From Paludibacteraceae bacterium (GTDB lineage Bacteria; Bacteroidota; Bacteroidia; Bacteroidales; Paludibacteraceae), in contig JAKSKX010000003.1 of NCBI GenBank assembly GCA_024401535.1, positions 1 to 64,000 on the forward strand: 64,000 bases of DNA, given 5' to 3'. Below are positions 31,427 through 32,414 of the stretch, piece by piece. A program made the position numbers and the translations under genes. The number at the start of each line of letters is the position of its first letter. Position 1 is the first letter of the stretch. The notes beneath the pieces are model-generated. The model did not search any database. It saw only the letters and a list, made by a program, of their open reading frames with translations, and was not told the origin of the DNA.

Positions 31427-31457
31427 TTTGCAGATAAATGATTATTTATTACTTTTG
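31427..31457 (+). promoter_or_regulatory. Promoter of the structured RNA upstream of DUF6261
   Basis: TTTG (31427-31430), 19-nt spacer, TACTTTTG (31450-31457): full consensus. Predicted start about 31463-31465, some 280 nt before the next ATG. Confidence 0.75.
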
Positions 31458-31463
31458 CATTCG

Positions 31464-31724
31464 CAAACGGGAAATATGAGTGTCGGGCAGATAGAAATAT
31501 CATTTATCACTCATTGCCGTGACAGTCGCTTTCTTCATGATATAGCGAGAATTACGAGAAAGGCAAAGCCCTTCTCAAAATGAGGAACTTATTATTTTCA
31601 CAACTTTTACCTAGAATAGGTAAAGCAGACCAGAATGGTCTAGCAATGGCGAGCCATTAGTTGTATCACTTATCACTTTTTTCGATTGTGTATATCTTCG
31701 TGAGAAGACAACACAATTTTTTTT
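31464..31724 (+). ncRNA. Multi-hairpin structured RNA, family not recognised
   Basis: About 260 nt between a consensus promoter and an intrinsic terminator. Hairpins seen by eye: ATGAGTG/CACTCAT (31476-31514) enclosing GATA-GAAA-TATC; TCGCT/AGCGA (31526-31548); GAGAA..GGC-AAA-GCC..TTCTC (31556-31576); TTTACCTA-GAA-TAGGTAAA (31606-31624); AGACCA-GAA-TGGTCT (31627-31641); AATGG-CGAG-CCATT (31645-31658); terminator 31685-31724. There is no ORF. It is not tmRNA, RNase P, SRP or a tRNA by signature. It may be an independent ncRNA or an attenuating leader of the DUF6261 gene that begins 22 nt later. The exact 5' end is inferred from the promoter. Confidence 0.6.
31685..31724 (+). terminator. Intrinsic terminator of the structured RNA
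   Basis: ATTGTGT (31685-31691) pairs with ACACAAT (31711-31717), with an inner TCTTC-GTGA-GAAGA stem and eight T. It lies only 22 nt before the DUF6261 ATG, so readthrough or a second promoter is needed for that gene. Confidence 0.8.
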
Positions 31725-31745
31725 GTTAAAACGATTAAGCACAAA

Positions 31746-32414
31746 ATGAATCTTTTTCAGATCAGCAAACTCTATGCTGCAAATAACGAAGAACACGCCA
31801 GACTTTCGGAGGAAATACTCTCCAAAGTCAAAGATTCTGTGCTTGCTCAAACTCTTTTCCCTTACACAGTCAAACTTGCTGAAGTTCTTTACAGCGAAAA
31901 GGAAAGCTTGCTTGCCAGCAGACAAAGTCTTCATACTGAACGAATAAAGGATTTGTACAGACAACAGGCCCTATACAGAACTGTCATCAAAAAAAGCATC
32001 ACTTTCTTCATCAAAACAGGTAGCGAGGAGCAATCCAAACAGGCTTCAAGAGTAATGAGAATCTATGACAAATGTGGACTTAATGCGCTAACTCTAAAGA
32101 CTAATGAGATGAACGAGTCTGTCAGCAAATTCATAAAGCAAAGCGAAAGCAAGGACATTTGCCAGATAGTGGATTCATTCGGCGTACGCGACAAAATAAA
32201 CGAACTTAAGCGCATGAACGCAGAGGCAGTATCATTGCTCGAAAAGAGAGAAATCGAGCGCAAAACGAGCAAGAAATGCAATGCCGAGCCGCTTCGAAAG
32301 GCAACTGACAACATCATTTCCCTAATAGACGCCAAACTCCAAACCTTACGTTTTGAGCAAGGTTCGGAAGATATGGAAAAAATGATCAAAGAAATTCAGG
32401 AAGTGCTAAACTAA
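31746..32414 (+). CDS. DUF6261 family protein
   Basis: Protein of 222 aa, predicted almost entirely alpha-helical with no signal peptide or membrane segment. Its layout (N-terminal helix MNLFQISKLYAANNEEH, a central LYRTVIKKSITFFIKTG, a later KINELKRMNAEAVSLLEKREIE) resembles DUF6261, a Bacteroidota family of unknown function. Similarity is by pattern only. Its only evident promoter lies upstream of the structured RNA. The stop overlaps the stop of the convergent GHL10 gene by 3 nt. Confidence 0.65.
   Translation: MNLFQISKLYAANNEEHARLSEEILSKVKDSVLAQTLFPYTVKLAEVLYSEKESLLASRQSLHTERIKDLYRQQALYRTVIKKSITFFIKTGSEEQSKQASRVMRIYDKCGLNALTLKTNEMNESVSKFIKQSESKDICQIVDSFGVRDKINELKRMNAEAVSLLEKREIERKTSKKCNAEPLRKATDNIISLIDAKLQTLRFEQGSEDMEKMIKEIQEVLN

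What the first reader, a model, noticed from the sequence alone, without database searches (positions are those of the whole stretch)
31427..32414. Promoter-driven, terminator-ended multi-hairpin RNA directly upstream of a DUF6261 gene
A full-consensus promoter starts a transcript of about 260 nt that folds into at least six local hairpins and ends in a strong intrinsic terminator 22 nt before a DUF6261 ORF. It matches no RNA class I know by signature. Either it is an autonomous ncRNA paired with DUF6261, or the leader/terminator switches DUF6261 expression. RNA plus protein of unknown function in an AT-rich island is the best candidate here for an undescribed system.
Basis: partly seen in the sequence, partly recalled or inferred. 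Interest (0 to 1): 0.72.

Follow-up and report, generated by a model that had tools for sequence, protein, structure and literature searches.

The report
Regulatory leader of a DUF6261 gene
The stretch looks like a control region at the start of the message for a protein of unknown function, rather than a free-standing RNA, and related genes in other bacteria of the same order often carry a striking array of evenly spaced mirror repeats at the same place.

Summary
The anatomy is real. There is an exact TTTG-N19-TACTTTTG promoter (31427-31457), a leader of about 260 nt, a moderate intrinsic terminator ending at 31724, and a PF19775 (DUF6261) ORF at 31746-32414. Rfam has no match for the leader.

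It is best read as a cis leader. A 24-mer (31655-31678) recurs once in each of 7 of 8 congeners, always in the leader of a homologous DUF6261 gene (28-29% identical in the five aligned). In six of these, the block from leader start to codon 17 is almost invariant. The hairpins and terminator are not shared with congeners (no T run longer than 3 in 7 of 7 leaders), and the window leader folds equally well in antisense. That speaks against a conserved structured ncRNA.

Following the family outward gave the larger result. Tandem arrays of 41-42-nt dyad repeats lie within 500 nt upstream of 43 of 60 DUF6261 genes, against 13 of 591 other ORFs in the same stretches. In 18 further genomes it was 10 of 18. 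Units mostly differ from gene to gene. The dyads show no G-U bias, which points to DNA sites. The window copy lacks such an array.

Attenuation of DUF6261 by read-through is my favoured mechanism. It is inferred, not shown.

The parts
31427..31457 (+). promoter, TTTG-N19-TACTTTTG
   Evidence: exact match to TTTG-N18..20-TAnnTTTG; consensus recalled
31464..31724 (+). predicted 5' leader of the DUF6261 mRNA, about 261 nt; start inferred from promoter spacing
31498..31514 (+). second, degenerate copy of the heptad motif (TATCATTTATCACTCAT, 15 of 17 identical to the congeneric leader)
   Evidence: 1 of 500 shuffles reaches its score
31556..31576 (+). dyad GAGAAAGGCAAAGCCCTTCTC
31606..31624 (+). 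dyad TTTACCTAGAATAGGTAAA
31627..31641 (+). dyad AGACCAGAATGGTCT
31645..31658 (+). dyad AATGGCGAGCCATT, overlapping the start of the 24-mer
   Evidence: read; paired in the MFE; not listed by the strict search
31655..31678 (+). 24-mer CATTAGTTGTATCACTTATCACTT, identical in leaders of homologous DUF6261 genes of 7 congeneric genomes
   Evidence: its 15-nt core
31684..31724 (+). intrinsic terminator: stem 31684-31718, U8 31717-31724
   Evidence: fold -12.5 kcal/mol
31746..32414 (+). DUF6261 protein, 222 aa, predicted all-helical
   Evidence: PF19775, 31.1 bits; model mean pLDDT 93.0

Best explanation
The segment is the cis-acting untranslated leader of the DUF6261 gene. Transcription starts at the 31427-31457 promoter, runs through a leader holding the 24-nt recognition element and several dyads, and is expected to stop mostly at the 31684-31724 terminator. 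DUF6261 would be made on read-through, when a factor acts on the leader. I think the likeliest factor is the DUF6261 protein itself (autoregulation), acting on the conserved heptad element TATCACTTATCACTT or on the dyads.

Shown by sequence: promoter, terminator, coupling of the 24-mer to homologous DUF6261 genes, near-invariance of the congeneric leader through codon 17. Inferred: that the leader is transcribed as one unit, that termination is regulated, and that DUF6261 is the regulator.
For: An exact promoter lies at the start of the segment. A U8-tailed hairpin in sense orientation lies 21 nt before the ATG.

The 24-mer, at up to 2 mismatches, occurs in 8 of 61 genomes, once each, all in one genus. 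In all 8 it lies in the leader of the same type of DUF6261 gene. Its 15-nt core occurs in 8 of 31 genomes, one copy each.

In five congeneric loci looked at the gene stands beside a DUF1573-like gene (name by eye), unlike in the window, so the element goes with the gene.

Across six congeneric loci 2 of 136 leader sites and 0 of 51 sites of codons 1-17 vary. Third positions vary at 0 of 18 in the first 18 codons and at 123 of 202 downstream; upstream, 47 of 100 sites at -350 to -250 vary.

The same layout (promoter, dyad-rich leader, DUF6261) is suggested elsewhere: perfect TAnnTTTG boxes with a -33 element precede the array in 9 of 45 array-bearing genes and lie between array and gene in none; one gene has them inside the array. 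The search space upstream was longer and most of the 45 have no such box at all, so this is only suggestive.
Against: The congeneric leaders have no intrinsic terminator (7 of 7 without a T run over 3), so attenuation would be special to this species. I found no antiterminator fold that competes with the terminator.

The window leader folds as well in antisense, so its dyads may be DNA sites. Window protein and congeners share only 28-29% identity (five aligned). Outside the 24-mer the two leaders share little (best 17 columns, 1 of 500 shuffles as good).

In a congener an in-frame ATG lies 36 nt upstream (L058), so part of its frozen 'leader' could be coding.

Leader-to-CDS pairing, strong in congeners (22 pairs, 0 of 500 shuffles in L058 and in L062), is not supported in the window (448 of 500 shuffles as good). 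No RNA-seq could be examined.
Confidence: 0.5

Rival explanations
1. The dyads and the heptad element act as double-stranded DNA sites. A helical DNA-binding protein, perhaps DUF6261, binds the template downstream of the promoter and blocks or organises transcription. The 41-42-nt arrays of other family members are the canonical form, one site per four helical turns; the window has a decayed or rearranged form.
For: TRF listings centred in the upstream 500 nt with period 39-45 are almost only 41 or 42 (24 and 26 of 51, overlapping listings counted apart), near 4 x 10.5 bp. Dyads in 45 arrays: 129 against 24 in shuffles; G-T mismatches 22 against A-C 19, no sense-RNA bias. The window leader folds alike on both strands. 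The window protein is basic, pI 9.0.
Against: No tandem array in the window (TRF none in 31000-31800; upstream lag 42 z 2.1, exceeded by lag 19; leader lag 42 z -1.8, lag 43 z 2.3; 80 lags tested); its dyad spacing is irregular. Median pI of 60 family members is 6.1. No DNA-binding fold was found. The U8 terminator is strand-specific.
Confidence: 0.28
2. An autonomous structured sRNA of about 260 nt, ending at the terminator, that acts in trans or together with the DUF6261 protein.
For: Own promoter and terminator frame it; fold z -4.4.
Against: A congeneric leader (L058) has neither the hairpins (0 strict dyads; z +0.57) nor a terminator, and its conservation runs into the CDS. Apart from matches of 24 and 32 nt the window leader is not found in 40 relatives.
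Confidence: 0.12
3. Translational control through a long-range helix between leader and the first codons, as the inverted repeat of the congeners suggests, with the terminator incidental.
For: In congeners the leader segment TTTACATTTGTCGGGTGTAGAC pairs with codons 9-16 in 22 positions with two single-base bulges; 0 of 500 shuffles as good in L058 and in L062. By RNAduplex 0, 2 and 2 of 100 shuffles are as good in L058, L060 and L062.
Against: Not supported in the window (448 of 500 shuffles) nor in any of 60 other DUF6261 genes (0 of 60 at the level of at most 1 of 100 shuffles). Congeners are too alike for a covariation test.
Confidence: 0.08

Closest known systems
Transcription-attenuation leaders (terminator-ended 5' UTRs before a gene)
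   Same: promoter, structured leader, intrinsic terminator just before the start codon
   Different: no known ligand motif, no shared leader peptide, no antiterminator found, no Rfam match; no terminator in congeners
REP/BIME palindromes with their RAYT transposases
   Same: palindromic repeats next to one gene family; one DUF6261 array (L136) has look-alike arrays elsewhere in its genome
   Different: the DUF6261 models are all-helical, whereas RAYTs are HUH (Y1) enzymes (recalled); arrays are strictly periodic; arrays of one genome rarely share even an 11-mer (5 of 128 DUF6261-array pairs)
Iteron or operator arrays of DNA-binding proteins
   Same: tandem dyads with helical phasing upstream of the gene
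   Different: no known DNA-binding domain found; the unit sequence differs for nearly every paralogue examined

Membership tests
DUF6261 (PF19775) | profile score above the gathering score | tested here: met
   31.1 bits against 27
DUF6261 (PF19775) | same predicted architecture as a typical member | tested here: inconclusive
   both models all-helical with a similar order of helices, read from the listings; the two models were not superposed
Transcription attenuator leader | promoter, leader and intrinsic terminator before the gene | tested here: met
Transcription attenuator leader | alternative antiterminator fold | tested here: inconclusive
   none seen in MFE folds; not searched exhaustively
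Transcription attenuator leader | regulated read-through | not testable with these tools
   needs RNA-seq or reporters
Known Rfam RNA family | match at gathering score, or E up to 1 in the leader | tested here: not met
   also none for the congeneric leader L058
DUF6261 genes with 41-42-nt dyad array | tandem array within 500 nt upstream | tested here: not met
   TRF finds no array in 31000-31800; lag 42 does not stand out upstream (z 2.1) or in the leader (z -1.8; lag 43 z 2.3)
REP/RAYT | HUH tyrosine transposase encoded by the partner gene | tested here: not met
   no transposase family in the Pfam scan of the window protein; predicted all-helical

The most novel reading that the evidence does not exclude
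DUF6261 is a large Bacteroidales family of helical nucleic-acid-binding proteins. Each paralogue is typically paired with its own array of dyads spaced 41-42 bp (four helical turns) upstream of its gene, with some cognate arrays elsewhere in the genome. The genus of this window carries a derived form in which the array is replaced by a near-invariant leader element.
Probability: 0.3. Interest if true: 0.8.

Novelty: new variant of a known kind. Interest (0 to 1): 0.55.

Why it matters
DUF6261 genes occur in a dozen or more copies in some genomes (six genomes reach the 12 candidates that one search scored), and the searches here found no assigned function. A precise, mostly paralogue-specific array fixed at 41-42 nt in front of most of those examined gives a concrete handle on what the family does. 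It turns 'unknown function' into a testable question: does each protein bind its own array? The window's leader and its congeners' near-invariant block are a compact model for the same question in one gene.

Tried and rejected
Rejected: a known RNA family. A conserved multi-hairpin RNA in the genus. Leader-CDS pairing as a family rule; the RNAduplex version agreed for the window (z +1.36). A shared leader peptide: the window frame from 31476 (35 codons) and the congeneric frame (7 codons) differ. A 42-nt array hidden in the AT-rich island. Sense-RNA hairpins in the arrays by G-U bias (22 against 19). Arrays shared among paralogues of one genome: within-genome 5 of 128 pairs share an 11-mer, hardly more than 23 of 804 between genomes; only L129/L131 share much, and L136 shares much with a non-DUF6261 array.

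Limits: the array idea arose on 21 loci (13 with an array directly upstream). 5 of the 60 test loci (L149-L153) are among those 21; without them the count is 38 of 55. I chose the 60, preferring genomes with many copies and long contigs, so they are not a random draw; they come from 11 genomes. Of the 591 control ORFs 13 have an array of their own; 9 more have upstream a DUF6261 gene's array and were not counted, which would make 22. One search used 18 loci, the best-scoring of 18 other genomes (10 hits, one of period 43); L095 there probably has a misplaced start. Start codons were assigned by rule. Control ORFs are 200 aa or more, not annotated genes; 196 upstream regions were sampled. For the congeneric leader test six of seven loci were used (L064 left out, its gene is cut by the contig end; L060 has a short upstream).

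Full report
Observation. 31427-31457 is an exact TTTG-N19-TACTTTTG, one of 11 such matches in the window against 1.26 expected. Downstream lies a leader whose fold beats dinucleotide shuffles (z -4.4). A hairpin with U8 ends at 31724 (-12.2 kcal/mol; the only + strand site among 8 in the window). The DUF6261 ORF 31746-32414 scores 31.1 bits against a cut-off of 27. The neighbours on either side, a phosphorylase gene and a GHL10 gene, both lie on the other strand, and the GHL10 gene is convergent. Rfam has no match for the leader, even at E up to 1.

Relatives in the genus. Seven of eight other genomes of the genus hold a homologous gene (28-29% protein identity in the five aligned) with a leader that contains the window's 24-mer exactly. 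With 2 mismatches allowed, the 24-mer is found in 8 of 61 genomes, once in each; the eighth congener, G007 (78% complete), has neither. Record titles speak of Bacteroidales, Paludibacteraceae and Candidatus Scybalocola. In five loci looked at the gene sits beside a DUF1573-like gene (by eye), unlike in the window. Across six loci the leader and the first 17 codons are nearly frozen: 2 of 136 and 0 of 51 sites vary, third positions 0 of 18 against 123 of 202 further down. Leader and codons 9-16 form an inverted repeat of 22 pairs. An in-frame ATG 36 nt upstream in L058 leaves open that the last part of this block is coding. The congeneric leader L058 alone is not unusually structured (z +0.57) and has no strict dyads; 7 of 7 congeneric leaders lack a T run over 3 and so a terminator. 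What is conserved between window and congeners is therefore a promoter-leader-gene layout and a sequence element, not the hairpins.

RNA or DNA. The window leader folds as well in antisense (z -5.3) as in sense (z -4.1). Its dyads alone do not say that RNA is the active form. The terminator and promoter do point to a sense transcript.

The wider family. PF19775 matches occur in 16 of 61 relatives and 32 of 295 genomes of the order, often in several copies. TRF on 21 loci showed tandem arrays of period 41-43 directly upstream in 13. On 60 loci with up to 20 kb around them, 43 have an array of period 39-45 within 500 nt upstream, against 13 of 591 other ORFs in the same stretches (odds ratio 112; 22 of 591 if ORFs facing a DUF6261 gene's array are counted). 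Five of the 60 were discovery loci; without them 38 of 55. In 18 further genomes, 10 of 18. Periods are almost only 41 and 42. Units differ from gene to gene except between some orthologues of sister genomes such as L117/L125. The arrays are rich in dyads (129 against 24 in shuffles) whose centres lie mostly 41-42 or 20 nt apart; mismatches show no G-U bias (22 G-T, 19 A-C, 51 other). Six of the 45 arrays gave no strict dyad. DUF6261 genes without an array also have more dyads upstream than other genes (mean excess 1.7 in 16 genes against 0.8 in a sample of 196; p 0.007). One array (L136, genome G574) has look-alikes at several other places of its genome, for example between two galactokinase-like genes (names by eye). 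TRF listed 16 arrays of period 41-42 in 931 kb of background, overlapping listings counted apart, so arrays are not exclusive to DUF6261. The window itself has no array.

Protein. Models of a typical member (L168, pLDDT 95.3) and of the window protein (93.0) are all-helical, and no solved structure matches with E<=0.001. pI is mixed (median 6.1 in 60; window 9.0), so nucleic-acid binding is a hypothesis.

Judgement. The segment is most likely a cis leader of DUF6261 with an attenuator-like end. Which molecule acts, RNA or DNA, and which factor reads it, is open. The window copy is an outlier within a family whose usual upstream partner, in the genomes examined, is a phased dyad array. That association is the result I would carry forward.

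Noticed in passing
L109-L168, upstream of DUF6261 starts: Tandem arrays of 41-42-nt dyad units, mostly private to each gene, precede 43 of 60 DUF6261 genes (13 of 591 other ORFs).
   Followed up: yes
L170, L173, L174, L176, L182 (genome G574): Look-alikes of the L136 dyad array (TTCTACA...TGTAGAA type) lie at other places of the genome, including between two galactokinase-like copies.
   Followed up: partly
L113, L122 (genomes G550, G635): 42-nt arrays without DUF6261 precede an asparagine-synthetase-like gene in both genomes (name by eye), with different units.
   Followed up: no
L036 (own genome G000:C1:189435-189866): A second, longer DUF6261-like gene (323 aa, 22 bits, below cut-off) with an AT-rich upstream and no array.
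   Followed up: partly
L012, L045, L046 (own genome): Short stretches resembling 31661-31700 in antisense lie in 5' regions of unrelated genes (E 7e-5 to 0.003).
   Followed up: partly
L026, L073 (genome G006): A truncated DUF6261 copy with an internal stop lies about 1 kb from the intact one, in what looks like a tandem duplication.
   Followed up: no
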